This document shows positions 6,367-38,570 of a stretch of DNA of 41,333 nt, one piece after another. Location of the stretch: IMG/VR virus record IMGVR_UViG_3300014050_000058, positions 1 through 41,333 of that record, one strand, 5' to 3'. Origin of the DNA: a virus. Positions within the stretch are counted from its first letter, which is position 1. Every line of letters begins with the position of its first letter. Below the pieces are notes generated by a model. The model saw nothing but the letters and a program-made list of their open reading frames with translations. It did no database searches and was not told the DNA's origin. A program made the translations under genes and the position numbers.

Positions 6367-6756
6367 TTAGCTCCGTAAAGGTTTAGTAAACGATCTGATT
6401 AGCCGGAGCAGATTGGAGAACGGATCCTTTTTCCGATCATCCTTAGCAACCCAAAGCGGCAAATCCGAAATCAGATACCGTTCTTTCTCGAAAACCATGA
6501 ACGAAATGGCACTGGGGTCGTACCCGTTATAGTCCGGGTCTGTGAAAGAAGCTACGGGGATTCTGGAAGTTTCCAGGAATTTGATAAGATGAATCAACTC
6601 TTCCTTGTCTTCAACAGTCAGCCAGACAAAAGGAGTACCCGTGATAGACAGCATGGAAGGGTATGCCTGAAGATATTCATGCTGAGCGTGGGCACTTTGA
6701 ATAGCTTGTTGGTGGGAGGGAAGGTCCCTACGAGAAACTGCGTAGAAATAGAGCAT
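6367..6756 (-). CDS. peptidyl-tRNA hydrolase type 2-like protein
   Basis: A 129-residue protein. Its pattern matches Pth2: an initial strand ending in RRDL, a helix with the family-like QSAHAQHEYL (compare AQVAHA), a strand WLTVEDKEELIHLI and a later SRIPVASFTDPDYNGYDP segment resembling the family's PVALIRDAG region. Pth2 frees peptides from dropped-off peptidyl-tRNA. A phage copy beside a tmRNA and large tRNA arrays fits a role in recycling tRNAs. It lies at the head of the lysis unit, downstream of the promoter at 6912. Confidence 0.65.
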   Translation of the reverse strand: MLYFYAVSRRDLPSHQQAIQSAHAQHEYLQAYPSMLSITGTPFVWLTVEDKEELIHLIKFLETSRIPVASFTDPDYNGYDPSAISFMVFEKERYLISDLPLWVAKDDRKKDPFSNLLRLIRSFTKPLRS

Positions 6757-6977: not shown

Positions 6978-7736
6978 CTACCTCCTACCGTGAGTGCCCC
7001 GGAATGAAAGCTTCGAGTCAAATCCTTTCTGAGAAAACCTTTGCCCCTCTTCCACTTGGATCGGAGGGGAACTGTCGGGGTTGTCCTTCAGAGTGTTCAT
7101 AAACATCGAAATTCTTTGGTACATCTGCTCAGCTTTTACGATCTTTTGGATGCCCAGTTCCCTTAGGCAAGGCGTTTCAACCTCAATTAACAACCTTGAT
7201 GAACCAGACTCTCTGATAACAAAGACTGGTTTTTGGATCCTCTTTGACACGTCAACCAGAGTTTTCACCTCTCTATTAACGACTTCTTCGTAAGAGAGTT
7301 TATTCTTGTTTAAAAGAGGCAGGTTCCATGAAAAACCTGGCCTGATGTAATCCCAAGAGGGATGGTCTCTTGGTATCACATGGAAGGAGTGGGTAGGGTC
7401 AGAAATGTGTTCAAACGGATGCCCAAGGGGCACTTCTTTTACCAGTAGATATAAACAACCACAGACTGACAACCATCTGAACCTCCAAGGGAACTGTTTC
7501 CAACTTAATAGGTTACTGCCGTTGTAGGAGGTGAGGGAATTAAAACGGGGCAAAGGGAAACCATGATTTTGGACCTCAACTATCAATGAGTTATTTGTGG
7601 GATATGTAGACTCGGTAAGAGGTTGATCCACAAAACACTTATCTCTCTCGTATCTGTTGGATTCATCCCCACCCTCTTTGCTGTAGAGAAACTCCACATA
7701 GTCATAGTAATCCCTGAACTTAGATACTATCCTCAT
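6978..7736 (-). CDS. MRIVSKFRDYYD-family phage protein (252 aa)
   Basis: I start at ATG 7736 because the protein then opens MRIVSKFRDYYDYVEFL, a start shared by a common family of hypothetical phage proteins. An upstream extension would run through the tmRNA. Central features are CGCLYLLVKEVP and HPFEHISDPTHSFHVIP. No catalytic motif is recognised. It follows the tmRNA and its terminator, so it depends on readthrough or an unrecognised promoter. Confidence 0.75.
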   Translation of the reverse strand: MRIVSKFRDYYDYVEFLYSKEGGDESNRYERDKCFVDQPLTESTYPTNNSLIVEVQNHGFPLPRFNSLTSYNGSNLLSWKQFPWRFRWLSVCGCLYLLVKEVPLGHPFEHISDPTHSFHVIPRDHPSWDYIRPGFSWNLPLLNKNKLSYEEVVNREVKTLVDVSKRIQKPVFVIRESGSSRLLIEVETPCLRELGIQKIVKAEQMYQRISMFMNTLKDNPDSSPPIQVEEGQRFSQKGFDSKLSFRGTHGRR

Positions 7737-7753
7737 GGCAAAACTTCCTAAAT

Positions 7754-7782
7754 TTGGAAAGAGGGAGACCTTAGCCTCCCTC
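7754..7782 (-). terminator. rho-independent terminator after tmRNA
   Basis: The minus strand reads GAGGGAG-GCTAAGGT-CTCCCTC followed by TTTCC: a 7-bp stem with a short U-rich tail, directly 3' of the tmRNA coding piece. It may alternatively be part of the tmRNA structure. Confidence 0.6.
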
Positions 7783-7992
7783 AAACAGAGTCGGAGTGCG
7801 TGGCTCAAACAGCCACAACAGCCCTCTCGAACTTGACGATTTTGTTAGCGTCTATTTTGTGCTTGTGCAAGCAGCTTTCACTTGAGTGAAATCTCCACCT
7901 CGTCGAAACCTTGGCACCCCCTTGTAATGGAAGTGAGGGGAATCGAACCCCTGTCCGAGATGTCATCTTCCCAAACTACACCTAGTTTTGAG
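7783..7992 (-). ncRNA. ssrA: two-piece, circularly permuted tmRNA
   Basis: The acceptor piece comes first (minus strand), with T arm GACAGGGGTTCGATTCCCC and 3' strand CACTTCC plus A73 at 7928. After only 6 nt the coding piece starts at 7921 with GGGGGTGCCAAGGTTTCGACG, carrying the tmRNA hallmark GGTTTCGACG. The two acceptor strands pair over 7 bp and include G3-U70, the alanine identity pair. The tag frame (7805-7849) begins at a GCT resume codon and encodes ANKIVKFERAVVAV. The permuted order and ANKIV start are typical of alpha-cyanobacteria. The tag's last residues are VAV rather than the usual VAA, which should weaken ClpXP recognition. CCA is not encoded. Transcription is probably from the promoter at 9284. 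Confidence 0.88.
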
Positions 7993-8271
7993 TCATTCGG
8001 TAGGACTATCCAACATCACTATTGAGGGAGAAGAAGCACCCATTGCAGCAATGTCGTCTTCCGAGAGAGTTTCGCAGAATTCTATAAAGTCATTGAGGCC
8101 CCAATGACACGCTTCGATCCACAATTTATTCCCTTCTTTGTCACTCGTTTGGAAGGCCAATGCCATTGCGTCGGATTCCCTCTGGTGACACAGGGCATAA
8201 GTCTCTTCGTCAAGAGAGACAGGTGCTCCGTTGCTCATCGCATATAGGACTCTGAGAAACTTAGGGCTCAT
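7993..8271 (-). CDS. hypothetical protein (92 aa)
   Basis: The ATG overlaps the stop of the 8268-8456 gene (ATGA), and the stop lies right at the 5' edge of the tmRNA acceptor piece. The protein is acidic and helical (LDEETYALCHQRESDAMALAF, FIEFCETLSEDDIAAMG). I do not recognise a family. Confidence 0.7.
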   Translation of the reverse strand: MSPKFLRVLYAMSNGAPVSLDEETYALCHQRESDAMALAFQTSDKEGNKLWIEACHWGLNDFIEFCETLSEDDIAAMGASSPSIVMLDSPTE

Positions 8272-13665: not shown

Positions 13666-13734
13666 TTGGGAAGGCAGGATTCGAACCTGCAATTGAGTAC
13701 TCTGCGATGGGCTTTGCCGTTTGCCTACTTCCCA
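13666..13734 (-). tRNA. short tRNA-like element, anticodon unresolved
   Basis: Acceptor TGGGAAG/CTTCCCA, A73, D arm GGC-AAACGGCAAA-GCC and T arm GCAGG-TTCGAAT-CCTGC are good. The region between D and T arms is 4 nt short and gives no proper anticodon stem (CATCGCAGAGTACTCAATT). Total 69 nt. Confidence 0.5.
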
Positions 13735-14193: not shown

Positions 14194-14264
14194 TTGACAC
14201 GGCAGGAATCGAACCTGCTACCGCTGACTGTTACGCCCCAGCTCTACCAATGAGCTACGTGTCG
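14194..14264 (-). tRNA. tRNA-like element with C1-A72 mismatch and disrupted anticodon stem
   Basis: Acceptor CGACACG/CGTGTCA pairs at positions 2-7 but not at 1-72. D arm GCTC-ATTGGTA-GAGC and T arm GCAGG-TTCGATT-CCTGC are canonical. The anticodon region (GGGGCGTAACAGTCAGC) does not form a 5-bp stem with a 7-nt loop. The 5' mismatch is the kind of defect a Thg1-like enzyme can correct; the anticodon defect is not. Confidence 0.5.
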
Positions 14265-17445: not shown

Positions 17446-18234
17446 TCACTCCAGTCCCGAGACAAACCAATCATAAGAGATTCGACCTGGGGGCTCCCAC
17501 TCTGCCACCACCGTTCGAACGATGGGCTGCGTTGGCCTGTGTTTTTCCGGAATTTCCCTCAGAGTGATCCAAGGATTATCGGGTTCAAACACCACCTTTT
17601 GACGACGCACATAGGTTCCATGGGTGAAGAATCTCGGAAGTTGATCCCAAGGTTCTCCGATTTCTTGGAGCAAACCTTTCATCTCGTCGCAAGTTTTACC
17701 TTGAAGGAACCTGTGAGAGAAATGGTGGTGAGCCATCATGGACACCGAGTTTTTGGTGGCGTCGTTCAACCTCCAAAGAAAGTTTTTGTAAACGTGCTCC
17801 AAATCCGGGACGTTCCAGACACGGCAGTCGAACACTGGGTATTGACCCATTTTTTCTGGCAAGTACTTCGGAAGGTTGCTTGCGAAAAAAGAGCTCGCTG
17901 TGGAAGCCAACACAGAGGTCAATTTCTGGAATTTGCCACCAAACCAGTACTCTCTGTTTGAATACTGCTCTTTGTCAAGGTTCCAATATAGGGTGATCTC
18001 GTCGGATTGGCAGTAGCCAAGCAGAGCTTCGCTCTCTCCAACAAGGTGTTTGGTAGTTGCCACCATCAAGCGCACAAAACGCTCGTCAAACGGTCGTTTC
18101 AATCCCTTGGTGAATTTGCTAAAGCATTTACCGTCGATGCGAGCCATCAGAGGGAGAAAAGGGTCCGCCCGTCTCCCAGCTTCAAGCTGCTCTTGTTGCT
18201 TCAGGGTGTCTCCTAGAGTGTCGGCGTAGGTCAT
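17446..18234 (-). CDS. Thg1-like 3'-5' nucleotidyltransferase (tRNAHis guanylyltransferase family)
   Basis: A 262-residue member of the Thg1 family, which adds nucleotides to tRNA 5' ends in the 3'-5' direction. Landmarks are LMARIDGKCFSKFTKG (metal-binding Asp), LGYCQSDEITLYW (SDE catalytic pair), FDCRVWNVPD, RLNDATKNSVSMMAHHHFSH and FFTHGTYVRR. Bacterial and phage Thg1-like proteins mainly repair 5'-truncated tRNAs by templated addition. The window's tRNA-like genes with mismatched first acceptor positions make editing or repair attractive here. Last protein gene of the operon from 20839. Confidence 0.9.
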   Translation of the reverse strand: MTYADTLGDTLKQQEQLEAGRRADPFLPLMARIDGKCFSKFTKGLKRPFDERFVRLMVATTKHLVGESEALLGYCQSDEITLYWNLDKEQYSNREYWFGGKFQKLTSVLASTASSFFASNLPKYLPEKMGQYPVFDCRVWNVPDLEHVYKNFLWRLNDATKNSVSMMAHHHFSHRFLQGKTCDEMKGLLQEIGEPWDQLPRFFTHGTYVRRQKVVFEPDNPWITLREIPEKHRPTQPIVRTVVAEWEPPGRISYDWFVSGLE

Positions 18235-18258
18235 TTTGCTATACGGGTTGCCAGGGAC

Positions 18259-18564
18259 TCAGTCCCATTTTAGCAGGATAAAGCGAGAGTACTTGTTGAA
18301 ACAATTGTAGTATTCATCAAATTTAACGGAGTAACCGTTTGAGGCAAATTCTCGCGTAAGAGCCTCTTTTGGCACTCTCGTAAAACCCCTAGCGGTTAAG
18401 TTATATTCTAAGCGTTTACTTCCCTCCTTGGCAGCATAAGTAATCGCCTTGTAAATGTCTTCAATGGCTCGCTGGGTAAGACTCTCCAACGCCAAATCCG
18501 AAGCTTCTCTTGCTTGTTCCGCTGTGATTCTTTCTGTTGTCACAGAGGTTGGGTCAACGGTCAT
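18259..18564 (-). CDS. hypothetical protein (101 aa)
   Basis: I start at ATG 18564 (MTVDPTSVTTERITAEQARE), overlapping the upstream gene by 11 nt. Helical N-terminal half (LALESLTQRAIEDIYKAITY) and an aromatic C-terminus (YYNCFNKYSRF). Unrecognised; lies just upstream of the Thg1-like gene. Confidence 0.7.
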   Translation of the reverse strand: MTVDPTSVTTERITAEQAREASDLALESLTQRAIEDIYKAITYAAKEGSKRLEYNLTARGFTRVPKEALTREFASNGYSVKFDEYYNCFNKYSRFILLKWD

Positions 18565-18823
18565 AGTTCTCCCAAGTTTTGGACGGCTTAACCTCGTGGG
18601 TAATCTCCACAATGGCTTTGCCCAGGGTATGAGATCCCATGAGTTCACCCCTCATGTCCGTAGGAGAATGGTTGATTACAAAGCGTACTTTTCCTGGTGC
18701 GTAACCAGCGGGAATCTCCGGAAATCGCTCCTTCACATAATTGTAAAGGATTTGCTCAATCAGCTCAGTTTTAAGTTCTACCTTGAGCGTCAGGTCTGCT
18801 TCTGGGTTCATAGTTTTGTCCAT
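18554..18823 (-). CDS. hypothetical protein (89 aa)
   Basis: Start at 18823 or the second Met at 18811. Contains ELIEQILYNYVKERFPEI, GKVRFVINHSP and KAIVEITHEVKPS. Similar short helix-then-strand proteins are common in cyanophages. Function unknown. Confidence 0.7.
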   Translation of the reverse strand: MDKTMNPEADLTLKVELKTELIEQILYNYVKERFPEIPAGYAPGKVRFVINHSPTDMRGELMGSHTLGKAIVEITHEVKPSKTWENYDR

Positions 18824-18832
18824 GTTGTTGGA

Positions 18833-19204
18833 TTAGATACCTTTTTCAAGGTAAGTTGTTGAGAATGTAACGTTATCCTGTGATGGTTTGAGCTTCAGAT
18901 AGGCTCTTGTAATCAGCTGTTCAGGGTCTGTTGAGTTGTCCCATGTCACCTTATTTTCGAAGGAGAGGAGGTCTTCATTGTGCCTGAAACAGAATTCACC
19001 TGATCCAAAAGCTAGCACAACTTCACCAACGTTAGCAGTGGGGATACCCGTGACACTGCGTTTCGGCACTTGGCGTATGTAGTATACAAGGTGTTCTTTC
19101 TTGCCACCCAGCAACCTCCTAAATAAACTTGTGTCTTTGTACTCAAACACCACTTCGTAGTTGAAGAGTTTGAAGTTAAACTCAGACAGGGGGGTGTTTT
19201 TCAT
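18833..19204 (-). CDS. hypothetical protein (123 aa)
   Basis: ATG 19204 lies 10 nt after the preceding stop. Beta-rich with basic patches (FRRLLGGKKEHLVYYIRQV, GEVVLAFGSGEFCF). No family recognised. Confidence 0.7.
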   Translation of the reverse strand: MKNTPLSEFNFKLFNYEVVFEYKDTSLFRRLLGGKKEHLVYYIRQVPKRSVTGIPTANVGEVVLAFGSGEFCFRHNEDLLSFENKVTWDNSTDPEQLITRAYLKLKPSQDNVTFSTTYLEKGI

Positions 19205-19213
19205 ATCAGAGGG

Positions 19214-19321
19214 TCAGTTGAGCAATGCTACGGAGGATGTGGGCAGGGGCGTCAGACTTCCGTTCGTTCCAGTGGGATCGCCACCGTTGGAATGAGAAGA
19301 TAAACACTGATTACACTTCAT
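19214..19321 (-). CDS. small hypothetical protein (35 aa)
   Basis: The ATG overlaps the stop of the next gene upstream (GATGA). Starts MKCNQC and is Gly/Thr/Ser/Pro-rich. Coupling supports translation, but the composition is low-complexity. Function unknown. Confidence 0.4.
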   Translation of the reverse strand: MKCNQCLSSHSNGGDPTGTNGSLTPLPTSSVALLN

Positions 19322-19434
19322 CGCACCCTGGTCTTATTGATGAAAATGGGCAAGAAACCGAACAACTTCCAAGTTGTTACCAGGTAGCTACGGTTGTAGG
19401 GCTGATTTTCAATATCAGTGAATTTGAACAGCAT
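19318..19434 (-). CDS. small hypothetical protein (38 aa)
   Basis: ATG 19434 follows the 19443 stop by 8 nt. The sequence (MLFKFTDIENQPYNRSYLV, then WKLFGFLPIFINKTR) looks protein-like, with a basic end and a hydrophobic patch. Coupled to the 35-aa frame. Confidence 0.5.
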   Translation of the reverse strand: MLFKFTDIENQPYNRSYLVTTWKLFGFLPIFINKTRVR

Positions 19435-19442
19435 AGTAGTTG

Positions 19443-19832
19443 TCAGTGAATGAACCTTGTAACAATGTCCACATAATGGTATCCCGAACAGAAGCTTTCG
19501 TCAGCTTCTAACTGAGCTTGATATGCCAAAGCTTCCTCTCGCTCAAAGAAAACTTTCACAGAACTCAAGTCTTCGCCTTGGCCCTGCTCCGAGCACCATC
19601 CTAAAGCCACACAGTAAACAGGCTTTTGTCGGTCCAACTTAAGACACTCGACCTCAAGTCTTGCGAGTTCAAGCTCCTCTTCCAGTTGCTTCAGCTTTCG
19701 GTACTCACACCAATCTTGGTGTCTTTCGAGAGACCCGTTGATCTCGGGAGTGGGAACCTCGCAATGCGCGCAACAGGAGTAAGGGTTGCCCCCGCCGATT
19801 GGCTTCGTAGGGTAATCGCTATAATACCTCAT
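19443..19832 (-). CDS. zinc-finger-like hypothetical protein (129 aa)
   Basis: I start at ATG 19832. N-terminal CCAHC then HQDWC could bind zinc. A heptad-like helix follows (KLKQLEEELELARLEVECLK), suggesting a coiled coil, then a basic-free C-terminus with FEREEALAYQAQLEADES. Function unknown. Confidence 0.7.
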   Translation of the reverse strand: MRYYSDYPTKPIGGGNPYSCCAHCEVPTPEINGSLERHQDWCEYRKLKQLEEELELARLEVECLKLDRQKPVYCVALGWCSEQGQGEDLSSVKVFFEREEALAYQAQLEADESFCSGYHYVDIVTRFIH

Positions 19833-19834
19833 CT

Positions 19835-20104
19835 TCAAGTCCGACCGCTATCTTGAATGTGAATGAGCCACTGCTCCACATATTGTACTACCTCAGCCAG
19901 GCGCTGGAACTCAGCGTCACGCTCGGCCCGTGCTCGTTCCCAAGCACCGTCTCCCTGAGGGTAGAAGTCGCGAGGGTGGCAGGTGGCCTGCGCCAGTGCC
20001 TCTGCGGCGTTGCTCAGTGCTTCCAGGACCGTGCGGTACTCCCTCTTGAGAGTAGCGGCACCAGTGCCGTTCAGGTGGAGAGTGGGGAGAGTGATTTCTT
20101 TCAT
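19835..20104 (-). CDS. hypothetical helical protein (89 aa)
   Basis: Starts MKEITLPTLHLNGTGAATL, a start I associate with a recurring phage protein family of unknown function. Helices ALSNAAEALAQA and FQRLAEVVQYVEQWL follow. Its stop is 2 nt before the next ATG. Confidence 0.75.
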   Translation of the reverse strand: MKEITLPTLHLNGTGAATLKREYRTVLEALSNAAEALAQATCHPRDFYPQGDGAWERARAERDAEFQRLAEVVQYVEQWLIHIQDSGRT

Positions 20105-20118
20105 GGTTTTGTGAATCT

Positions 20119-20217
20119 CTAAGGATAGAACTCAGGGAAGCTTTGAAGATCTTCAGTCCAGGATCGCTTTAGTTTTTCGGCGTAGCTATCGCTTATGGTT
20201 GCAGTCTCGTCAATCAG
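20119..20217 (-). CDS. possible 32-aa ORF with CTG start
   Basis: A frame directly overlapping the previous stop as CTGA (CTG 20217, TGA 20214-20216), analogous to the ATGA overlaps seen elsewhere. It fills an otherwise empty 110-nt gap with acidic, protein-like sequence (SYAEKLKRSWTEDLQSFPEF). No ATG or GTG is available. Could also be reached by frameshifting from the upstream gene. Confidence 0.35.
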   Translation of the reverse strand: MIDETATISDSYAEKLKRSWTEDLQSFPEFYP

Positions 20218-20492
20218 AGGGATTCGGGTAGGGAAATCTCTTGCCAGTAGGTTGGTGTGAAGGTTACACCGCCTTCAAATTTGTGGTTGAGCCAAAAAGA
20301 GTCTCCGTCTGGGTATAGAACAAACACCATCACTTCTACGCTCGGAGGGCTGTTGGGGATCCAAGAAGGTCCACAGACCAAGACAGGGTTCGACTGGAGT
20401 CTTCCATCAGGGTGCTTGTACCCTAGTGCAAGATTTCGGTCATAACAATCAGGGAGAGTTTCGGAAATGAGTTTCCAGTCAGAGGTGTTCAT
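20214..20492 (-). CDS. DUF551-like protein (92 aa)
   Basis: I start at ATG 20492, which overlaps the preceding stop (ATGA). The pattern WKLISETLPD...NPVLVCGPSW...YWQEISLPES follows the DUF551 layout (Trp near the start, LP, a central VLV strand, then W-LP at the end). Function of the family is unknown. Neighbour and order match the 26188-26762 pair. Confidence 0.55.
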   Translation of the reverse strand: MNTSDWKLISETLPDCYDRNLALGYKHPDGRLQSNPVLVCGPSWIPNSPPSVEVMVFVLYPDGDSFWLNHKFEGGVTFTPTYWQEISLPESL

Positions 20493-20824
20493 TTGCAGGA
20501 ACGTAGAATTAGGCGGTTGGCGCGTGAAGACCGAAAGCACCCTGCCCAAAGGTATGCACTCCAAGGGAGATGGCCTTTAGGACAGCTCCATTCAGCTGTA
20601 ACAGGACCGAGGTTAAGTCGCTCAGCCAAAGATTCAAGCTCAGACAGAGTCCTTACATTATAGAACTCCTTCATATGACGAAGACGGCTGAAATAGAAAG
20701 TCCCGATCTTGAAGCCAATGAATCGGTTGGGGTGAACACTATCCCTACCATCGTACACGAAGCCAGCATTAACTACTTGGCCAGCGGCTAGGTTGGAAAC
20801 TGCAACCTTTTTCACGAGAAACAC
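20489..20824 (-). CDS. hypothetical protein, paralogue of 26415-26762
   Basis: A GTG start 14 nt after the -10 (or the next GTG, AAA-AAG following). The segment FIGFKIGTFYFSRLRHMKEF...SAYLWAGCFRSSRANRL aligns with FFGFKLAG...EAYLWNGAFRVGTSADRL of the other copy. So the phage keeps two diverged copies, each followed by a DUF551-like gene. Function unknown. Confidence 0.7.
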   Translation of the reverse strand: MFLVKKVAVSNLAAGQVVNAGFVYDGRDSVHPNRFIGFKIGTFYFSRLRHMKEFYNVRTLSELESLAERLNLGPVTAEWSCPKGHLPWSAYLWAGCFRSSRANRLILRSCK

Positions 20825-20838
20825 TTGCTTACTTTTTA

Positions 20839-20898
20839 AGTATAGCCGTTCTTCCAGTGGCAGGCAAGGGGGTAAACCGAACTTTCACGGTTCGGTTC
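20839..20898 (-). promoter_or_regulatory. promoter of the Thg1 operon
   Basis: -35 TTGCCT (20862-20867), 17-bp spacer, -10 TATACT (20839-20844), box with GTTCGGTTTACCCCC and a second GGGAACCGAACC half. Reads through about ten genes to Thg1. Confidence 0.8.
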
Positions 20899-21127
20899 CC
20901 CTCTTTTCAAACTCTTTCTGCAACATTTCGACGGTCTCCCTCAACTCTCTGAGGTTCATCGTAGAAAAGTGGAGTTCCATCTCTTCTTTAATCCTCTCAC
21001 AATCTTCACAAGGGAACTCGGGAGGTGCCAGGCCCAATTCAACCGGGCAATCAGGGTCAAAGTATTTACAACCGCACTTTTGACAGCAGTGCGTGATGTG
21101 AACTTCGGTGCGGTCAACTTCCCTCAT
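20885..21127 (-). CDS. zinc-ribbon-like protein (80 aa)
   Basis: ATG overlaps the DNA ligase stop (TGATG). Cysteine pairs HCCQKCGCKYFDPDC and CEDC suggest a zinc ribbon, followed by a helical charged tail (LRETVEMLQKEFEKRG). Its end overlaps the box of the next promoter. Function unknown. Confidence 0.75.
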   Translation of the reverse strand: MREVDRTEVHITHCCQKCGCKYFDPDCPVELGLAPPEFPCEDCERIKEEMELHFSTMNLRELRETVEMLQKEFEKRGTEP

Positions 21128-22251
21128 CAGTAACCGCCGTCCAAGGTTTCCCTGAGGGAAACCCCTACAGGAAAGATTGGCACCCCGTCCTCACTCAGTT
21201 CTTGGTATCTAACAGTCAGGTATTTTCGGGCGGAAAGGATTTTATCCCGAGTTTCGTACAAACTTCTACGGTATTCCATATCCCCCTCGGGCACGACAGT
21301 GAATGTTTCTGTCTCAGTGGCACGACAAACAAAGATCGCAGCACCTTTGAACCTGCCGTCTCCATCCACAATGTCGAGAACTTCAAACTCACTGTCCACG
21401 AAATCCTTCACTTTCTGAAGCTGGTTGTTGCGGTGGCCGATGTCGTAACCTTCTGAGTCGAAGCGAACCATGGAACCTTCGAACCCGAGACGAACAAAAT
21501 GTTCGTGGTGTGCCATCACATCTGCGGCATTCTCTACGTTTACCGTGGGAGTGACTTTGACATGTTCTTTGTCAAGAACTAGAATTCTCCCCAGTTGATC
21601 AAACCTTTTTGAGTACCTTTTTGAAGGGTCAACAATGTCGTAGACCCAGTACACAAGAGTGGGGGACAACTCCGGACGAAACTTTTTGATCGCCGTCATT
21701 GTCTTTTGCAGCAGAGGGTTCCCCGGCAGAATGAGTTCTCCGTCTAGAATTACACCCTCAGGTAATGGCCCAATCTCATCTTTAATGTGAGTAATGCACT
21801 CTGGAATGATCTCTTTACCACCTCTCGACCAACCCTTTGTGCCGTCAAATAGCATTCGTTGGCCGTTTAACTTTGGTTGTACAAAGGCAGGCCAAGTAAT
21901 TTTGTGCCCTCGATCTGAGAACTTGTGGGCTAACATCGGCAACGGTAGGACCTCAGACTTTTGCCCAACCTCTGCATACCCTTTGTCTTTTTGCCTCTTA
22001 AAGTCCCTTTCAATCTCCAGGTAGGCTTGTTCTTCTGCAGAGGTTTCATTCGAGCGACCCACATTCTTAGCCTCTACAGCATAAGGGTCGCTCCATTGCA
22101 CTGCAGAGGTTGAGCCGTCATTCTTCAGTTGCCAATACGAAGTTTGGTTGTACCAGCCATCATCTGCATGGACAACGTGGCCCTGCCAGAACTTTGCTTT
22201 TCCTGTACGAGTTGTTGCCTGAAGAACAGGCGTGCTGTATACGATTGTCAT
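21127..22251 (-). CDS. ATP-dependent DNA ligase
   Basis: A 374-residue ligase. The N-terminal 70 or so residues (GHVVHADDGWYNQTSYWQL) look WGR-like and probably bind DNA. The nucleotidyltransferase core follows: motif I QPKLNGQRML (adenylated Lys), ILDGELILPG (motif III), FEGSMVRF (motif IV) and LQKVKDFVDSEFEVLDI (motif V), with an OB-fold C-terminus. It seals nicks in phage DNA. Preceded by a coupled 58-aa gene. Confidence 0.9.
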   Translation of the reverse strand: MTIVYSTPVLQATTRTGKAKFWQGHVVHADDGWYNQTSYWQLKNDGSTSAVQWSDPYAVEAKNVGRSNETSAEEQAYLEIERDFKRQKDKGYAEVGQKSEVLPLPMLAHKFSDRGHKITWPAFVQPKLNGQRMLFDGTKGWSRGGKEIIPECITHIKDEIGPLPEGVILDGELILPGNPLLQKTMTAIKKFRPELSPTLVYWVYDIVDPSKRYSKRFDQLGRILVLDKEHVKVTPTVNVENAADVMAHHEHFVRLGFEGSMVRFDSEGYDIGHRNNQLQKVKDFVDSEFEVLDIVDGDGRFKGAAIFVCRATETETFTVVPEGDMEYRRSLYETRDKILSARKYLTVRYQELSEDGVPIFPVGVSLRETLDGGY

Positions 22252-22424
22252 TCGTTTTCGTCAATTTGAAAGTATTGAAGGATCTCGTTCCTTAGGTTAG
22301 AACTCATATCTCGGCCTTCGTCTGCGCTAAAGAACAGCCTCCACAACAGGTTTTTAGCTTTTTCGAGATCTTCAATCTCTGAGACAAGTCCTTTCAGGTT
22401 TTCAATGTTGGAAGTTGCTCTCAT
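22248..22424 (-). CDS. hypothetical protein (58 aa)
   Basis: Uninterrupted frame from ATG 22424; its stop overlaps the ligase ATG (ATGA). Helical, probably coiled-coil (IENLKGLVSEIEDLEKAKNL), ending YFQIDENE. Function unknown. Confidence 0.7.
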   Translation of the reverse strand: MRATSNIENLKGLVSEIEDLEKAKNLLWRLFFSADEGRDMSSNLRNEILQYFQIDENE

Positions 22425-22482
22425 TGTTCTGTGTCGGTTTTCAGAAGGTTCAAAATTCTTTATTATTCCGTCTTCATTGATT

Positions 22483-22521
22483 CACAAGGAGAGTGCACAC
22501 ACATCTGTACACTCTCTTGTG
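22483..22521 (-). other. long hairpin between RNA-ligase and downstream genes
   Basis: CACAAGAGAGTG pairs with CACTCTCCTTGTG (12 bp, one bulge) around a 14-nt loop. No U-run follows, so it is more likely an mRNA stability or processing element than a terminator. Confidence 0.6.
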
Positions 22522-22539
22522 AGGAGCCAATCAGTAGGA

Positions 22540-23166
22540 CTAAACCAGGGAGTTTGGCACAAGAACAGAAGACCTCCAGTGCTTGTCCGTCTGGACATGG
22601 CCTTTACGCACGAACTTCCCAACTGAGGTTGAAAACTCTTCGTATCGGAAAGACCGAGCGAGACGGACCACGTATCCCTCTTTGGATTCCTTGTCGGAGG
22701 AGTTCCACAGAGACCGGATGGCCTTTTCGTTCCACTTGCCCTGGTAGAGAGTGGGAACGGAAGTAATTCCTAGAATGTTGAACCATTCTTGGGTTTCTTC
22801 CCAACTCAGAGCCTCGTTATTTGCGTCCCACACACTGAACCCCAGGAAGAACGAGGGAAGTTGAGTGTAGGCAACACTGTGCTTGGCCCAGAGGTTCTCT
22901 CCACAGATGCGCCACCCTTCGGGAATGTCCCTACAGAAGGAAGACCAGAATTGCTTAACCCAGGCTCTGTCCTCTCCACCTTTGCTATCAAGGGAGCGAG
23001 CGTGAATGTGATTCCGATACATAGTGGTATTTTCACCATCCATCTTTTCGGTCACAACAACTTCTTCGCCCTCAAACTGGCCCAGAGACTGGAGCACTTT
23101 GTCGTCGGAAGAGACGGACTCAGACCAAGGAAGGTGGAAGGTCCTGGGGTATTTGATTGGTTCCAT
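22540..23166 (-). CDS. RNA ligase (Rnl2-like)
   Basis: A 208-residue protein from ATG 23166. A TTG-started extension adds four residues. Motif I is VVTEKMDGENTTMYRN, with Lys as the AMP acceptor, then GWRICGENLWAKHS (motif III), FFLGFSVWD, SKEGYVVRL (motif IV) and a terminal GKFVRKGH (motif V). This ligase group seals nicked or broken RNA, and phage versions repair tRNAs cut by host anticodon nucleases. Promoter at 23195 with an atypically long 28-nt leader. No kinase-phosphatase partner is visible here. Confidence 0.88.
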   Translation of the reverse strand: MEPIKYPRTFHLPWSESVSSDDKVLQSLGQFEGEEVVVTEKMDGENTTMYRNHIHARSLDSKGGEDRAWVKQFWSSFCRDIPEGWRICGENLWAKHSVAYTQLPSFFLGFSVWDANNEALSWEETQEWFNILGITSVPTLYQGKWNEKAIRSLWNSSDKESKEGYVVRLARSFRYEEFSTSVGKFVRKGHVQTDKHWRSSVLVPNSLV

Positions 23167-23194
23167 GGTAACCTTCAACCATCTTTACAACCTT

Positions 23195-23238
23195 AGTTTA
23201 CCTGGCTTCGGTCAGGAAGTAAAGGTCGGGTTACCGAA
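23195..23238 (-). promoter_or_regulatory. promoter of the RNA ligase/DNA ligase unit
   Basis: -35 TTTACT (23218-23223), 17-bp spacer, -10 TAAACT (23195-23200), box GTTCGGTAACCCGACC. Leader of about 28 nt. Confidence 0.82.
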
Positions 23239-23244
23239 CTCCCC

Positions 23245-23535
23245 TTATCCCTGTCCCTGTCTGATGGCGTTCTTGCTGTACCTTTTTAAGATTCTGATAA
23301 TCATATCTTTCCTTTCCGACAACCTTTTATCCGCAACTGCTATCGAATCGGTTTCAAAATCAAACTTCACCCAACACATGTGATATATGCATACATCGGA
23401 AACATACTTCAGTTTGGAGATGGCCGTCTCCATTTTATTCAAATCAGCTTTCCAACACCGTAACTCTTGGAACTCGAGTAGAAAGTCCCAAACAGCCGTC
23501 CAACTGTGGTTCCCTCTTTTGATTTTATTTGCCAT
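23245..23535 (-). CDS. hypothetical protein (96 aa)
   Basis: I start at ATG 23535 (MANKIKRGNHSWTAVWDFL), 8 nt after the upstream stop. Basic, helical, with several cysteines (LRCWKADL, VCIYHMCWV). Last gene of the CCA-transferase operon. Function unknown. Confidence 0.7.
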   Translation of the reverse strand: MANKIKRGNHSWTAVWDFLLEFQELRCWKADLNKMETAISKLKYVSDVCIYHMCWVKFDFETDSIAVADKRLSERKDMIIRILKRYSKNAIRQGQG

Positions 23536-23543
23536 GTGCAGGC

Positions 23544-23906
23544 TCAATCAATGTAGTAATGAGACTCTTCCATAACCTCTCCAGCTCTGAGTGTCTCGTT
23601 CAGATATTCAATTGCTTCTTCCTCACTGCTAAATTTCTGAGGCAGAGGTATCCAATTGTTGGGTTGAGGCTTCCCGTTGACATGTATCATGCCAATTGTA
23701 GGGTAGTTCGGGAAAAGAATACGCAATGTAGTATGAGTGGATACAAATTGCTCAATAACCCAATGAACGGTGCCGTCATACCATACCTGACGAGTCAGTC
23801 TATAGTCCTTGTCTTGGGGTTCTCGCCTCTCTTCCTGAGGTTCGGGGAAAGTAACCTGGACACCTAAAAGATCAGCCATTGTCTTAATCAGAATTCTTGC
23901 TTTCAT
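23544..23906 (-). CDS. hypothetical protein (120 aa)
   Basis: ATG overlaps the preceding stop (ATGA). Contains WYDGTVHWVIEQFVS and IGMIHVNGKPQPNNWIPLP, ending with an acidic helix. Beta-rich; unrecognised. Confidence 0.7.
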   Translation of the reverse strand: MKARILIKTMADLLGVQVTFPEPQEERREPQDKDYRLTRQVWYDGTVHWVIEQFVSTHTTLRILFPNYPTIGMIHVNGKPQPNNWIPLPQKFSSEEEAIEYLNETLRAGEVMEESHYYID

Positions 23907-24241
23907 TTGACATCACTAACAAAAAAGTAGAAGTAACAATCAGTACCAAGTTCCAATTCCAAAGTCTCAAAGATGTCCTTCACTTCTTTGGCGAATTTCT
24001 TGCTTTGTCGGAGTTTGGATCCATGGGGCAAGTAAACACTATCGATTTGATAGCGGGGAGTATTCTCAAAGTCTCCCAAGCTTTTGTCAAAAAACGCACA
24101 TACTCCGTTACCGGAGAGGAAATCTAGACCATGCTTTTCGCAAAAGGGCATGATCACGCCACGTCTGAAAATTTCTCCTTCTTCAGAAAGACGTTCTTGA
24201 AACTCCTCGTATAGAGACCTAAGTTTATCCCTATAGTTCAT
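23903..24241 (-). CDS. hypothetical protein (112 aa)
   Basis: ATGA overlap on both sides. Begins with an amphipathic helix (YRDKLRSLYEEFQERLSEEG) and ends in aromatic strands (TDCYFYFFVSDVK). Function unknown. Confidence 0.7.
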   Translation of the reverse strand: MNYRDKLRSLYEEFQERLSEEGEIFRRGVIMPFCEKHGLDFLSGNGVCAFFDKSLGDFENTPRYQIDSVYLPHGSKLRQSKKFAKEVKDIFETLELELGTDCYFYFFVSDVK

Positions 24242-24438
24242 GCTGATCCCTCGTAAATTGTCTCTCCAGAAGGACTCTGGACCTTGAGGATTTCCAGGTT
24301 AAGAGAATCCTCTTGGCTATCGTCTGCTGGGTGTACGAACCAAACGACGTTATCAACGTGGCCTAGAATCGTCGCATTGTCCATATTATCCGCGAGGGAG
24401 GGAAGTTCCAGAGAGATTGTCAGTGTAACCTTGGCCAT
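24238..24438 (-). CDS. hypothetical protein (66 aa)
   Basis: Second gene of the CCA-transferase operon, 33 nt after it. Beta-rich start MAKVTLTISLELPSLADN, then NVVWFVHPADDS. Function unknown. Confidence 0.7.
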   Translation of the reverse strand: MAKVTLTISLELPSLADNMDNATILGHVDNVVWFVHPADDSQEDSLNLEILKVQSPSGETIYEGSA

Positions 24439-24471
24439 TTCTTTTTCAGTCAGAGTGTGGTTGAGTGGGCC

Positions 24472-25233
24472 TCACTGAGCCATGGTGGCATCAAGGCGAA
24501 GCCCGTCTCGGAAGATTGCTTCTTGAGTGTGCCTGGGGAGTTCTCCCAGCAGGCGCAGAGAGTGCAGGGTGTTTGCACGGAACATCTTCACAAGCTCTTC
24601 ACGGATGCGCTCAACAGAAACTTTTGAGAGCATTTCGGCAGAGGACTCAGAAATAAGAGCTTCCCAAGAGTCTGCTTCTACGTCGAAGCCTTTGGTGATG
24701 TGAAATCGGAATCCCCGTGCCACTCGAAGGCCATCCTCAGCAATCCTTTCCTCAGGATTGCCCACAAAGGAGAGAACACCCTCCTCAACGTCCTTCACAC
24801 CACCCACAAGATCGACAATGTTGCCCTCAATGTCTCGGGCCAGAGCATTGCAGGTAAAGTCCCTGCGGAAAATGTCGTCCCTCAGGGAACCAGGCTTCAC
24901 CCAATCAGGGCGACGACCGTCACTGTAAGGACCGTCTTTCCGGGCCAGAACGAAGTCTGCCACCTTAGTACGGGATTGCAGGGGATGGCCCTGAGGGACC
25001 CGTGCACGGAGAGTGAGAGTCCGGAGGCTGATCTCCCTTTGTGCCGGGGTATCGTGCTTAAAGAACAGGAAACCTTGAGAGGTAAGAAACTCCTCAAGTG
25101 CATAGAAAGCAGTCTCAGCGTCCTGGAACAGGCCTTCTCGCGCTACAACGGAGAAGTCAACGTCCTTGCTGTCCAGCCCTAGCAGGCTGTCTCGGACGCA
25201 ACCACCAACCTCGTAGAAAGTGAAATCGTTCAT
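24472..25233 (-). CDS. cca: CCA-adding tRNA nucleotidyltransferase, short form, leaderless
   Basis: A 253-residue class II CCA/poly(A) polymerase. It has EVGGCVRDSLLG with KDVDFSVV (catalytic D-x-D), RRDFTCNALA, IVDLVGGVKDVEEG and RIAEDGLRVARGFRFH. Bacterial enzymes run to about 400 residues, so this copy holds head and neck but little body or tail. None of the window's tRNAs encodes CCA, so such an activity is needed for every one of them; the phage copy would secure it. Its ATG is 6 nt after the -10, indicating a leaderless message. Confidence 0.88.
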   Translation of the reverse strand: MNDFTFYEVGGCVRDSLLGLDSKDVDFSVVAREGLFQDAETAFYALEEFLTSQGFLFFKHDTPAQREISLRTLTLRARVPQGHPLQSRTKVADFVLARKDGPYSDGRRPDWVKPGSLRDDIFRRDFTCNALARDIEGNIVDLVGGVKDVEEGVLSFVGNPEERIAEDGLRVARGFRFHITKGFDVEADSWEALISESSAEMLSKVSVERIREELVKMFRANTLHSLRLLGELPRHTQEAIFRDGLRLDATMAQ

Positions 25234-36134: not shown

Positions 36135-36150
36135 TGCTTTTGCCAGAAAA

Positions 36151-36221
36151 AGCCCCCAGCGAGAATTGAACTCGCGTCCCCTCCTTACCAAAGAGGTACT
36201 CTACCACTGAGCTATAGGGGC
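36151..36221 (-). tRNA. tRNA-Thr(GGT)
   Basis: Acceptor GCCCCTA/TGGGGGC, T73, anticodon arm CCTCT-TTGGTAA-GGAGG, T arm GCGAG-TTCAATT-CTCGC. TTTTT follows the acceptor, which may act as a terminator. Confidence 0.92.
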
Positions 36222-36247
36222 CTAAAGTTTAGAACTAATGAAGCCAT

Positions 36248-36715
36248 TTACGAGAAAGGAGGTTCAAGCAGGAGCGACAGCATGTCCTGGATTACAGTAT
36301 ACACAGGGTCTTCTTTCGTAAAGGCAAATTTCTTAGAAGCCTGGTTATCGATCCAATCTCGAACTCCCGACCCAAATTCTGTCGACCTTGCATACCAGTC
36401 GCATACCATCTCTGCAATGTAAACTTTTGGCATGTCATGAATACTACCCCAATACTCGGGGTGGTGAGGGTTCACAGACTGGTGATGTTTCACAACTTCC
36501 GATAATAAAGGGTCCGAATAAAAGAGATGCTCAAATTCTATGCCCTTAAACTTTGAGTTGTCGTGAATCTGTCCGTTTGCAATCAGGTTGCGACCGAGTT
36601 CTATTTCTCCCCTCTTCATCAACTTCAGACCAAGTTTGTAACAGCTTCTCTGAACGTTTTGAATATGGTTAAAAACCAGCTCTATCTTGTCAATGGCTTC
36701 AGTTTCAATGGACAT
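36248..36715 (-). CDS. DUF5662-like protein (155 aa)
   Basis: Pattern IHDNSKF near residue 50, then VVKHHQSVNPHHPEYWGSIH, MPKVYIAEMVCDWYARSTEF. This His/Asp-rich arrangement is that of DUF5662, a phage and bacterial family that looks HD-like and may bind metal. Function not established. Translated after a 7-codon leaderless mini-cistron. Confidence 0.75.
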   Translation of the reverse strand: MSIETEAIDKIELVFNHIQNVQRSCYKLGLKLMKRGEIELGRNLIANGQIHDNSKFKGIEFEHLFYSDPLLSEVVKHHQSVNPHHPEYWGSIHDMPKVYIAEMVCDWYARSTEFGSGVRDWIDNQASKKFAFTKEDPVYTVIQDMLSLLLEPPFS

Positions 36716-36718
36716 TGC

Positions 36719-36742
36719 TCAGGAACCTGCAAAGTCTTTCAT
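36719..36742 (-). CDS. 7-codon leaderless mini-cistron (MKDFAGS)
   Basis: ATG lies 6 nt after the -10 TATCAT, as at the other leaderless promoters. The frame stops after seven codons, 3 nt before the next ATG (TGA-GCA-ATG). It probably loads ribosomes that then reinitiate on the DUF5662-like gene. It contains GCAGG, a weak ribosome-binding site for that gene. Confidence 0.5.
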   Translation of the reverse strand: MKDFAGS

Positions 36743-36748
36743 ACTATT

Positions 36749-36815
36749 ATGATAGTGTTTCCGCGGTGCGAAAACAAGGGTGGGAACCGAACGTTTCAGG
36801 GAGGTTTCCCGACCC
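36749..36815 (-). promoter_or_regulatory. leaderless-type promoter
   Basis: -35 TTGTTT (36772-36777), 17-bp spacer, -10 TATCAT (36749-36754). Boxes GGTCGGGAAACC and GTTCGGTTCCC. Confidence 0.85.
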
Positions 36816-36935
36816 GTGCGGAGAGGGTCCTCAGAGCCTCTCAGAGGCCTGAGAAGGCTGCCCTTGGGTAAGGGCTGAGAGAGCGGGCTGGAGCCCCTTG
36901 GAGGCGCTCTAGAGTGTTGCTCACGCAGCTTACAG
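36816..36935. other. GC-rich spacer of short inverted repeats
   Basis: No gene. Dense small palindromes (CCTCAGAGCCTCTCAGAGGCCTGAG, quoted here only in part: CAGAGCCTCTCAGAGGCC). Similar GC-rich spacers lie at 12600-12720, 38985-39090 and 41200-41333, each next to a promoter or tRNA array. Confidence 0.5.
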
Positions 36936-37007
36936 TCCGAGATGGGAATTTCGAAATCCCGACTTCTGGTCCCCAAGGCCAGCGCTCTTCCTCTGAGCTA
37001 ATCCCGG
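36936..37007 (-). tRNA. tRNA-Pro(TGG)
   Basis: Acceptor CCGGGAT/ATCTCGG, A73, anticodon arm CTGGC-CTTGGGG-ACCAG (one mismatch next to the loop), T arm GGGAT-TTCGAAA-TTCCC. Confidence 0.82.
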
Positions 37008-37074
37008 TTGGAGCCGTTTCGTCTAGTGTAAAGACCCGGCAGGCAGACCGGCAGGGGGAGACCCCTAAGTGAAC

Positions 37075-37125
37075 CTAACAGGATTCGAACCTGCAACTTC
37101 CAATTGAGTTATAAGCCCGTGTTAA
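37075..37125 (-). tRNA. tRNA-like fragment (T arm plus TAT-type loop)
   Basis: T arm GCAGG-TTCGAAT-CCTGT and 3' acceptor TAGGTTC with A73, preceded by GGG-CTTATAA-CTC resembling an anticodon arm with TAT. No D arm or matching 5' acceptor is visible, because the preceding gene ends there. Confidence 0.4.
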
Positions 37126-37262
37126 CTCATGCTTTCCAGTGTATAGGTTTTACCCTTGAAATCAACTGTGAGAGAAAGATTAACCAAAGCAGCCTGTAAC
37201 TGCTTTCTAGCTTCAGGGTCTTGCAAGATTTCCTTCATTAGCTTGGTTGATTCTACTTTCAT
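37122..37262 (-). CDS. hypothetical protein (46 aa) within the tRNA array
   Basis: I start at ATG 37262 (MKVESTKLMKEILQDPEARK), since the longer frame crosses tRNA-Gln. QLQAALVNLSLTVDFKGKTY follows. A compact basic protein embedded between tRNAs. Function unknown. Confidence 0.6.
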   Translation of the reverse strand: MKVESTKLMKEILQDPEARKQLQAALVNLSLTVDFKGKTYTLESMS

Positions 37263-37294
37263 TTTCTCAAAGTTCCGTATGGTCGGAATGGAAA

Positions 37295-37366
37295 TTCTGG
37301 AACTAGGATTCGAACCTAGATAAACTCCTTCAAAGGGAGGTGTCCTGCCAGTTAGACGATTCCAGA
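37295..37366 (-). tRNA. tRNA-Gln(TTG)
   Basis: Acceptor TCTGGAA/TTCCAGA, A73, anticodon arm CCTCC-CTTTGAA-GGAGT, T arm CTAGG-TTCGAAT-CCTAG. Confidence 0.92.
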
Positions 37367-37447
37367 TTGCGAGATGTTCACTTTCTAAGGTGAATTGGGA
37401 GTGAGAGGGTAACACTGGACCATATTCGTTTTGTCTGAGCAAAACAA

Positions 37448-37523
37448 TCGGGATGACAGGACTTGAACCTGCGAAACCTCTCGCCCCCCAGACGAGCGCT
37501 CTACCAAACTGAGCTACATCCCG
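37448..37523 (-). tRNA. tRNA-Pro(GGG)
   Basis: Acceptor CGGGATG/CATCCCG, A73, anticodon arm CTCGT-CTGGGGG-GCGAG, T arm GCAGG-TTCAAGT-CCTGT. Confidence 0.93.
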
Positions 37524-37535
37524 TTAAATTGGACA

Positions 37536-37620
37536 CGGAGGGAGGGGGAGTCGAACCCCCAAGGGCTTTCACCTCGACTGTTTTCAAGACAGTTTCCGTC
37601 GCCAATCGGATTGCCCCTCC
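37536..37620 (-). tRNA. tRNA-Ser(TGA)
   Basis: Class II: acceptor GGAGGGG/TCCCTCC, G73, anticodon arm ACTGT-CTTGAAA-ACAGT, variable arm, T arm GGGGG-TTCGACT-CCCCC. Confidence 0.93.
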
Positions 37621-37674
37621 ATCTACCTTCATTCAGTGGGCTTTGGATTTCAAAACGAAACAGAATGAAAGTTA

Positions 37675-37748
37675 CGCCTTCTAGAGGATTCGAACCTCTG
37701 ACCCTTCGATTCGTAGTCGAATGCTCTAGTCCGCTGAGCTAAGAAGGC
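37675..37748 (-). tRNA. tRNA-Arg(ACG)
   Basis: Acceptor GCCTTCT/AGAAGGC, G73, anticodon arm TTCGA-CTACGAA-TCGAA, T arm AGAGG-TTCGAAT-CCTCT. A34 would need conversion to inosine by host TadA. Confidence 0.94.
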
Positions 37749-37758
37749 AGGGAATTCA

Positions 37759-37813
37759 GAGATTGACCCCAACCTCGCCAGAGCTAGGGAATCGAACCGA
37801 TAAGGTCAATCTC
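37759..37813 (-). ncRNA. minihelix-like RNA (10-bp stem enclosing a T-loop motif)
   Basis: GAGATTGACC pairs perfectly with GGTCAATCTC 35 nt away. The enclosed part holds CGGTTCGATTCCC, a T-arm-like motif, with no D or anticodon arm. Either a collapsed tRNA or a small structured RNA. Confidence 0.4.
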
Positions 37814-37869
37814 AGGCTTGCGTAAACCATGCATAGTTCACATTCGCCTTTGCGCTTGTACTAACGCAA

Positions 37870-37950
37870 TACCTGCCGGGGGACTCGAACCCCCACGCCT
37901 TTCGGCGCCTGATTTTGAGTCAGGTGCGTCTACCATTCCGCCATGCAGGC
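37870..37950 (-). tRNA. tRNA-Leu(CAA)
   Basis: Class II: acceptor GCCTGC/GCAGGT, A73, anticodon arm CCTGA-CTCAAAA-TCAGG, variable arm GCGCCGAAAGGCGT, T arm GGGGG-TTCGAGT-CCCCC. Confidence 0.92.
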
Positions 37951-38056
37951 ATAGAGGTGCCCGGACACCTTGTATCAGTTTTCGGACTGAAGGACCTATC
38001 ACCAACCAACCGAAGTTTCTTAACGAGAGAGGTGAATTCCCGATTCCCTTAGGGAA

Positions 38057-38137
38057 TGCCCACCGGGGGACTCGAACCCCCAAGCCTTACGGCATCTGGT
38101 TCTAAGCCAGACGTGTCTACCATTTCACCAGGCAGGC
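38057..38137 (-). tRNA. tRNA-Leu(TAG)
   Basis: Class II: acceptor GCCTGCC/GGTGGGC, A73, anticodon arm TCTGG-CTTAGAA-CCAGA, variable arm TGCCGTAAGGCT, T arm GGGGG-TTCGAGT-CCCCC. Confidence 0.93.
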
Positions 38138-38216
38138 TTTTTGCTCAGATGCTCAAAGAGTCAGAAAAACTTACCCTTTCAGCGTTACACTTGTGGTCTG
38201 AGGAGTGAATCAAAGT

Positions 38217-38482: not shown

Positions 38483-38531
38483 TTAGCAATTTCACTTTTT
38501 ATCGCCACATATGTGAATGAGCCTATTCTTT

Positions 38532-38568: not shown

Positions 38569-38570
38569 GA

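What the first reader, a model, noticed from the sequence alone, without database searches (positions are those of the whole stretch)
17446..25233. A concentrated RNA-maintenance kit including a Thg1-like enzyme
Within this phage are a Thg1-like 3'-5' polymerase, RNA ligase, CCA-adding enzyme, 2H phosphoesterase, Pth2-like hydrolase, tmRNA and over 30 tRNA or tRNA-like genes. None of the tRNAs encodes CCA. At least two tRNA-like genes (14194-14264 and 15236-15311) have mismatches only at the first acceptor positions, the defect Thg1-like proteins repair in other systems. This suggests phage tRNA repair or 5' editing, perhaps against tRNA-cutting defences.
Basis: partly seen in the sequence, partly recalled or inferred. 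Interest (0 to 1): 0.78.

Follow-up and report, generated by a model that had tools for sequence, protein, structure and literature searches.

The report
Phage tRNA-repair kit with Thg1-like enzyme

Summary
The kit is real: a Thg1-like protein (17446-18234), RNA ligase, CCA-adding enzyme, 2H-type phosphoesterase, permuted tmRNA and 22 ARAGORN tRNAs. A T-arm scan finds 35 elements on the tRNA strand against 1 on the other; none is followed by CCA. Pth2 is weakly supported. The kit is not new: 125 phage records encode Thg1, and the set was already described as jumbo-phage RNA repair (PMC7824862).

The mechanistic clue fails. In 191 tRNAs of 12 other Thg1-encoding phages, acceptor mismatches are not concentrated at pairs 1-3 (5/573 against 20/764 at pairs 4-7), nor in the window or its closest relative (87-kb contig, Thg1 80% identical). 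15236-15311 does not fold as a tRNA. 14194-14264 has one mismatch (C1.A72), identical in the relative, but lacks a normal anticodon arm.

Best reading: a TLP-type enzyme in an ordinary tRNA-maintenance kit, probably repairing damaged tRNAs.

What looks new lies beside it: conserved tRNA-like RNAs keeping acceptor and T-arm without a usable anticodon; and, in the relative and other phages, tRNAs interrupted between positions 28 and 29 by 41-55 nt whose removal restores a perfect tRNA. Phage tRNA introns are reported in Lak megaphages; this class was not found in the papers searched.

The parts
17446..18234 (-). Thg1-like protein (TLP-type 3'-5' nucleotidyltransferase), 262 aa
   Evidence: PF04446 98.2 bits; phrog_4717; closest solved relative BtTLP 4kgk
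22540..23178 (-). ATP-dependent RNA ligase (PF09414), 212 aa
   Evidence: 169 IMG/VR relatives, 80 loci kept
24472..25233 (-). CCA-adding enzyme / tRNA nucleotidyltransferase
   Evidence: PF01743 + PF12627; 56% identical to Synechococcus phage B23
8804..9223 (-). 2H-type cyclic phosphodiesterase-like protein with two HxT motifs
   Evidence: PF08302 E=1.8e-9; motifs
6367..6756 (-). possible Pth2-like peptidyl-tRNA hydrolase
   Evidence: only through its homologue in the relative, PF01981 E=0.027, below cut-off
7714..8017 (-). permuted (two-piece) tmRNA
   Evidence: ARAGORN tmRNA*; RF04321 84.1 bits
12762..17312 (-). tRNA cluster 1, with tRNA-like elements between the genes
36150..39812 (-). tRNA cluster 2
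14194..14264 (-). tRNA-like element 'B': acceptor with C1.A72 mismatch, D-arm and T-arm, no standard anticodon arm; inside a longer conserved stretch 14138-14437
   Evidence: same mismatch in relative L002 8051-8121
13666..13734 (-). 69-nt tRNA-like element: acceptor, D-arm and T-arm, no pairing anticodon arm; two compensatory acceptor changes against the relative (T-A to G-C, A-T to G-C)
39967..40074 (-). tRNA-like element 'A': 108-nt Tyr(GUA)-like RNA with an 8-9 bp hairpin in the D-loop; compensatory changes in acceptor and D stems against the relative
37070..37118 (-). 49-nt tRNA-like element: acceptor + D-arm + T-arm, no room for an anticodon arm
   Evidence: RF00005 25 bits, below gathering; T-arm scan; sequence read directly
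   Evidence: no ARAGORN or Rfam call; best fold xxx||x|

Best explanation
The window is part of a large phage, probably of cyanobacteria, that carries its own tRNA set and a tRNA-maintenance and repair kit of the kind known from jumbo phages. The Thg1 homologue is a bacterial-type Thg1-like protein (TLP): it would bind the acceptor/T-arm half of tRNAs and add nucleotides 3'-to-5' by Watson-Crick copying, restoring 5' ends lost by damage or faulty processing. The CCA-adding enzyme finishes the 3' ends, which the genes do not encode; the RNA ligase and the 2H phosphoesterase mend cleaved tRNAs; the tmRNA (and perhaps a Pth2-like enzyme) rescues stalled ribosomes and peptidyl-tRNA. It does not systematically rewrite encoded 5' mismatches, because the tRNA genes have essentially none. 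Shown: the genes, their families, intact catalytic motifs, absence of encoded CCA, absence of a 5'-mismatch signature. Inferred: enzyme activity, 5' repair as the role, and host defence as the cause of damage.
For: Family and motif evidence. No CCA after any of 35 T-arm elements, so a CCA enzyme is needed. The relative G001 encodes Thg1 (80% identical) together with RlaP and PF09414 and PF09511 RNA ligases. Thg1 occurs in 125 phage records, many of them jumbo phages, and in the tRNA-rich terminal repeats of XacN1 (PMC5852040). The same set is described as RNA repair in PMC7824862 and a very similar set in phage CBB (PMC5259590). No 5'-mismatch signature.
Against: No activity is shown and the damaging nuclease is unknown. 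The Pth2 assignment is weak. No 5'-kinase was identified among the proteins scanned in this fragment, so a complete heal-and-seal route is not demonstrated. ARAGORN is biased against tRNAs with bad acceptors, although the T-arm-anchored test does not depend on acceptor pairs 1-3. Host assignment rests on cyanophage-like relatives only.
Confidence: 0.6

Rival explanations
1. Obligatory 5' editing: the phage encodes tRNAs with wrong first bases, which are removed and rewritten by the Thg1-like protein, as in some protist mitochondria.
For: Element 14194-14264 has a lone C1.A72 mismatch, and TLPs can do this chemistry (PMC6471195).
Against: Well-scoring cloverleaf genes in the window pair at positions 1-3, except a pair-3 mismatch in the Sec-like 31756 element. 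Mismatches are not enriched at pairs 1-3 in 12 other Thg1+ phages (5/573 against 20/764). The mismatched element does not look like a decoding tRNA; C1.A72 is identical in the relative, though this is weak evidence because the whole element is nearly invariant.
Confidence: 0.06
2. Canonical tRNA-His maturation: the enzyme adds G-1 to tRNA-His of phage or host.
For: This is the name-giving activity of the family. The relative's tRNA-His has A73 instead of the usual bacterial C73.
Against: No tRNA-His in this fragment. In the relative a G is already encoded at -1. TLPs prefer Watson-Crick templated addition and most do not efficiently add G-1 opposite A73, though BtTLP is unusual in complementing yeast (PMC6471195).
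Confidence: 0.13
3. The kit serves the phage's own unusual RNAs: it processes, splices or end-finishes the non-cloverleaf tRNA-like RNAs and, in related phages, the tRNAs interrupted at position 28/29.
For: Ten orphan T-arm elements in the window and ten in the relative, against 1 and 0 on the other strand. TLPs bind acceptor stem and T-arm and do not contact the anticodon loop (PMC6471195), and those are the parts these RNAs keep. Interrupted tRNAs lie in the relative. RNA ligase homologues occur in several interrupted-tRNA phages.
Against: No interrupted tRNA of this class is found in the window itself. Several records with them show no ligase or Thg1, though most are fragments; Synechococcus phage B23 has one without Thg1. 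Vibrio phage D69 has ligases and Thg1 but no orphan T-arms in the stretch tested. No endonuclease is known.
Confidence: 0.12
4. The genes are hitchhiking cargo of a recombining tRNA region, with little function in infection.
For: Thg1 is sporadic among jumbo phages (PMC7824862); tRNA regions of other phages carry homing endonuclease genes.
Against: Thg1 is 80% identical to the relative at protein level while the DNA is 75% identical, and its active-site motifs are intact.
Confidence: 0.08

Closest known systems
Jumbo-phage RNA-repair and tRNA-provisioning systems (comparative review PMC7824862)
   Same: RNA ligase, 2H phosphoesterase, CCA-adding enzyme, Thg1 and many tRNAs, read as counter-defence
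   Different: This set is in a fragment of a probable cyanobacterial phage, with a permuted tmRNA and about ten non-cloverleaf tRNA-like elements
Pectobacterium phage vB_PcaM_CBB (PMC5259590)
   Same: tRNA-rich region, tRNA-His guanylyltransferase, peptidyl-tRNA hydrolase, two RNA ligases
   Different: A complete cultured phage of a different lineage; it has interrupted tRNAs of the 28/29 class, the window does not
Bacillus thuringiensis Thg1-like protein (BtTLP, PDB 4kgk; PMC3701042)
   Same: Closest solved relative; motifs RIDG, QSDE and KNS shared
   Different: Here phage-encoded beside a tRNA array; activity untested
Bacteriophage T4 rnaC (species 1 RNA)
   Same: Stable RNA inside a phage tRNA cluster with a T-arm and acceptor-like 3' end but no cloverleaf
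   Different: Relatedness was not tested; the window's elements are several and of different builds
Lak megaphage tRNA introns (PMC6784885)
   Same: Phage tRNAs interrupted by short inserts called introns
   Different: The 28/29 class seen here in relatives shares a hairpin and an ACAGCAA motif across unrelated phages; the Lak inserts were not compared. The window itself has none of this class

Membership tests
Thg1/TLP superfamily | PF04446 catalytic domain over the curated cut-off | tested here: met
   98.2 bits against cut-off 29.2
Thg1/TLP superfamily | Conserved metal-binding aspartate and D/E pair | tested here: met
   RIDG D34 and QSDE D78/E79 align with BtTLP
TLP (bacterial type) rather than eukaryotic Thg1 | Closest to a bacterial TLP | tested here: inconclusive
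   4kgk 95.8 bits against 42.8 and 35.8 for the two other solved guanylyltransferases; no tree was built
Thg1/TLP superfamily | 3'-5' nucleotide addition activity | not testable with these tools
   needs an enzyme assay
5' tRNA editing system (mitochondrial type) | Many tRNA genes with mismatches confined to acceptor pairs 1-3 | tested here: not met
Jumbo-phage RNA-repair kit | RNA ligase plus end-healing enzyme plus nucleotidyltransferases together with tRNAs | tested here: met
   ligase, 2H-like protein, CCA enzyme, Thg1, 22 tRNAs
Jumbo-phage RNA-repair kit | Polynucleotide kinase/phosphatase | not tested
   No targeted search; none appeared among the proteins scanned, and the record is a 41-kb fragment
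Jumbo-phage RNA-repair kit | Genome over 200 kb | not testable with these tools
   The window is an IMG/VR record of 41,333 bases, probably a fragment
Peptidyl-tRNA hydrolase Pth2 | PF01981 match | tested here: inconclusive
   none for the window protein; homologue E=0.027, below cut-off
28/29-interrupted tRNA class (seen in relatives) | 41-55 nt insert splitting the anticodon stem, cloverleaf restored on removal | tested here: not met
   no member in the window by strict finder or covariance model

The most novel reading that the evidence does not exclude
Phages of this group make two kinds of unusual tRNA-related RNA: conserved tRNA-like RNAs that keep only the acceptor/T-arm half and no usable anticodon (in this window), and real tRNAs interrupted between positions 28 and 29 by a 41-55 nt structured insert with an ACAGCAA motif (in its relative and in unrelated phages). 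The kit of ligase, 2H phosphoesterase, CCA enzyme and Thg1-like protein would splice and finish these RNAs: a phage-encoded tRNA-splicing and end-building pathway.
Probability: 0.1. Interest if true: 0.85.

Novelty: new member of a known kind. Interest (0 to 1): 0.45.

Why it matters
The kit itself adds one more lineage to a known counter-defence theme. It also gives a clear negative: Thg1-carrying phages do not encode 5'-defective tRNAs as a rule, so the enzyme must act on damaged or unusual RNAs rather than on faulty genes. If the tRNA-like and interrupted RNAs prove to be substrates, they would give the widespread phage Thg1 and RNA ligases a physiological role. Interrupted tRNAs occur in cultured phages (CBB, BF, Erwinia pEa_SNUABM), so splicing can be tested at the bench.

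Tried and rejected
1) Encoded 5' mismatches as Thg1 targets: rejected by two tests. 2) 15236-15311 as a tRNA: rejected. 3) 25527-26225 as a 2H phosphoesterase: no Pfam, PHROG, NCBIfam or phage match. 4) Relatives by DNA motif: TTTGCCCCAAGATTAAC and GCCCATCGCAGAGTACTC hit only the known relative and unrelated sequence, so the window's own elements rest on a two-phage comparison. 5) RNA-ligase neighbours: the closest IMG/VR loci carry no tRNAs. 6) Permuted tRNA genes as the source of orphan T-arms: looked at by eye only, for one element, nothing found; not tested systematically. 7) The 28/29 insert class in the window: absent. 8) Correlation of interrupted tRNAs with ligase or Thg1: undecided because most records are fragments. 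9) An insert-free copy in close relatives of CBB: not found among the matches examined. 10) Structure prediction was not run; family membership was clear without it.
Full report
WHAT WAS CHECKED. The window is a 41,333-base IMG/VR virus record. The Thg1 homologue, RNA ligase and CCA-adding enzyme lie where the finding says; the other items lie outside its coordinates. Family evidence is strong for Thg1, RNA ligase and CCA enzyme, fair for a 2H phosphoesterase at 8804-9223 (PF08302, two HxT motifs) and weak for Pth2. The tmRNA is permuted. ARAGORN finds 22 tRNAs plus the tmRNA.

HOW MANY tRNA-LIKE ELEMENTS. A scan for T-arm hairpins finds 35 on the tRNA strand and 1 on the other; a stricter version 32 and 1 (binomial p about 8e-9). 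Ten in the window, and ten in the relative G001 (one of them its tmRNA), have no ARAGORN gene over them, against 1 and 0 on the opposite strand. So the count of 'over 30' is right, but about a third are not ordinary tRNAs. None of the 35 is followed by CCA.

THE 5' MISMATCH TEST. In the first test, acceptor pairs of ARAGORN tRNAs were scored: the window has one pair-1 mismatch (the 14194-14264 element) in 22 genes; 191 tRNAs from 12 other Thg1-encoding phages have 5 mismatches in 573 pairs at positions 1-3 and 20 in 764 at positions 4-7 (Fisher p=0.024 in the direction opposite to the claim). Thg1-lacking cyanophages show a similarly low rate. In the second, each T-arm was used as an anchor and cloverleaves were chosen on arms other than acceptor pairs 1-3; the well-scoring cloverleaves of window and relative pair at 1-3, with exceptions at the relative's tRNA-Met(CAT) and a pair-3 mismatch in the Sec-like 31756 element; one window gene (39324) was placed in a wrong register by this scan and pairs fully in the first test. 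A pair-1 mismatch in an initiator tRNA is a normal bacterial feature (general knowledge). True 5'-editing systems affect many different tRNAs (PMC6471195).

THE TWO NAMED GENES. 15236-15311 is not called by ARAGORN or by Rfam even at relaxed threshold and folds badly. 14194-14264 is real and conserved: the relative has the same element with the same C1.A72. It lies in a longer conserved stretch (14138-14437, 79% identical; near-identical over the element and about 60 nt downstream) and has no normal anticodon arm. The conserved mismatch does not decide for or against editing, because the whole element is nearly invariant.

OTHER CONSERVED ELEMENTS. 13666-13734 (69 nt) keeps its acceptor stem through two compensatory changes between the phages. 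39967-40074 folds in both phages as a tRNA-Tyr(GUA)-like RNA with an extra hairpin in the D-loop; acceptor and D-stem change in a compensatory way while the anticodon loop is invariant. These comparisons rest on two genomes only.

HOW KNOWN IT IS. 125 phage records match this Thg1. XacN1 carries Thg1 in both copies of its tRNA-rich terminal repeat (PMC5852040). PMC7824862 describes RNA ligases, 2H phosphoesterases, CCA enzyme and Thg1 of jumbo phages as RNA repair against host attack. The CBB paper lists a very similar set (PMC5259590). Phage tRNAs that evade tRNA-cutting defences are published (PMC10264068, PMC11555353). So the kit is a new member of a known kind.

HOW IT MOST LIKELY WORKS. 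The nearest solved relative is BtTLP, a TLP. [quoted passage not shown] With a CCA enzyme for 3' ends and a ligase plus 2H phosphoesterase for breaks, the kit would cover damage at every part of a tRNA. The role in this phage is inferred.

A LEAD IN THE RELATIVES. Following the orphan T-arms led to tRNAs of 110-128 nt in the relative (36716-36834, 37180-37298), Pectobacterium phage CBB, Serratia phage BF, Erwinia phages, Synechococcus phage B23 and IMG/VR contigs. Removing 41-55 nt between positions 28 and 29 restores cloverleaves with anticodons TTT, GGT, TGT, TAT and TTC in most of them; one CBB gene, L140, B23 and the relative's two elements fit less exactly (read by eye). On a 15-sequence alignment the structure, including the anticodon stem split by the insert, pairs in 88.6% of cells with covariation score 0.66 against 0.20 in shuffles and 0.10-0.20 with slid partners; the insert's own hairpin pairs in 61% of cells, partly for alignment reasons. 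Two Erwinia phage genes (L156, L157) show the outer anticodon pairs changed together. The finder gave no hits in 1.9 Mb of shuffled sequence; the companion count on real sequence ended in a script error, so the real hits are those. Lak megaphages were reported to have 'enigmatic' tRNA introns (PMC6784885); whether they are this class was not tested. Excision is inferred, not shown, and the window itself has no member.

CONCLUSION. The best-supported reading is a TLP-type enzyme in an ordinary phage tRNA-maintenance kit. The more surprising material is the set of tRNA-like and interrupted tRNAs beside such kits; their link to the kit is speculation at present.

Noticed in passing
G001 (IMGVR_UViG_3300032173_000003) 36716-36834, 37180-37298 (-); L134 9425-9546, 7724-7837; L137, L138, L141-L144, L146, L147, L150, L156, L157; L131 3409-3518: tRNA genes of 110-128 nt interrupted between positions 28 and 29 by about 41-55 nt (hairpin then ACAGCAA); in most, removal restores a perfect cloverleaf (Lys, Thr, Ile, Glu). 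Covariation is strong. Possible introns of a shared class in unrelated phages.
   Followed up: partly
window 39967-40074, 13666-13734, 14138-14437: Conserved tRNA-like RNAs without a standard cloverleaf, shared with the relative; two show compensatory changes.
   Followed up: partly
window 38217-38343, 13737-13859, 13174-13251, 14070-14128, 13860-13934, 37070-37118: Further orphan T-arm elements, seen only in this phage so far, with large or missing anticodon regions.
   Followed up: partly
G001 intergenic stretches within 36500-37500 and near 75500, and L131 upstream of 3409: Hairpins of the form GGTTCAGCAAYYAAAAACC...AACC recur beside interrupted tRNAs and share the CAGCAA motif with the inserts.
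   Followed up: no
L120 2230-2348 (Salicola phage SCTP-2): A tRNA whose insert contains a second T-arm, resembling the Lak report of an intron that may encode a tRNA.
   Followed up: no
window 2402-3895, 3892-4824, 28601-29524: NAD-related genes: NAMPT/NAPRTase, PRPP synthetase and NadA quinolinate synthase, perhaps a counter to NAD-depleting defences.
   Followed up: no
window 9334-9810: SpoT/MESH1-like HD hydrolase, possibly a ppGpp hydrolase.
   Followed up: no
G001 76757-76829 (-): tRNA-His with A73, an encoded G-1 and mismatches at acceptor pairs 4 and 5.
   Followed up: no
window 15940-15990 and 15650-15710 (-): A direct repeat (cggttacccgaactttacttccttgaggaaaccggctatagtaaaagggtggttggttgagagcttcgct) inside the tRNA cluster.
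   Followed up: no
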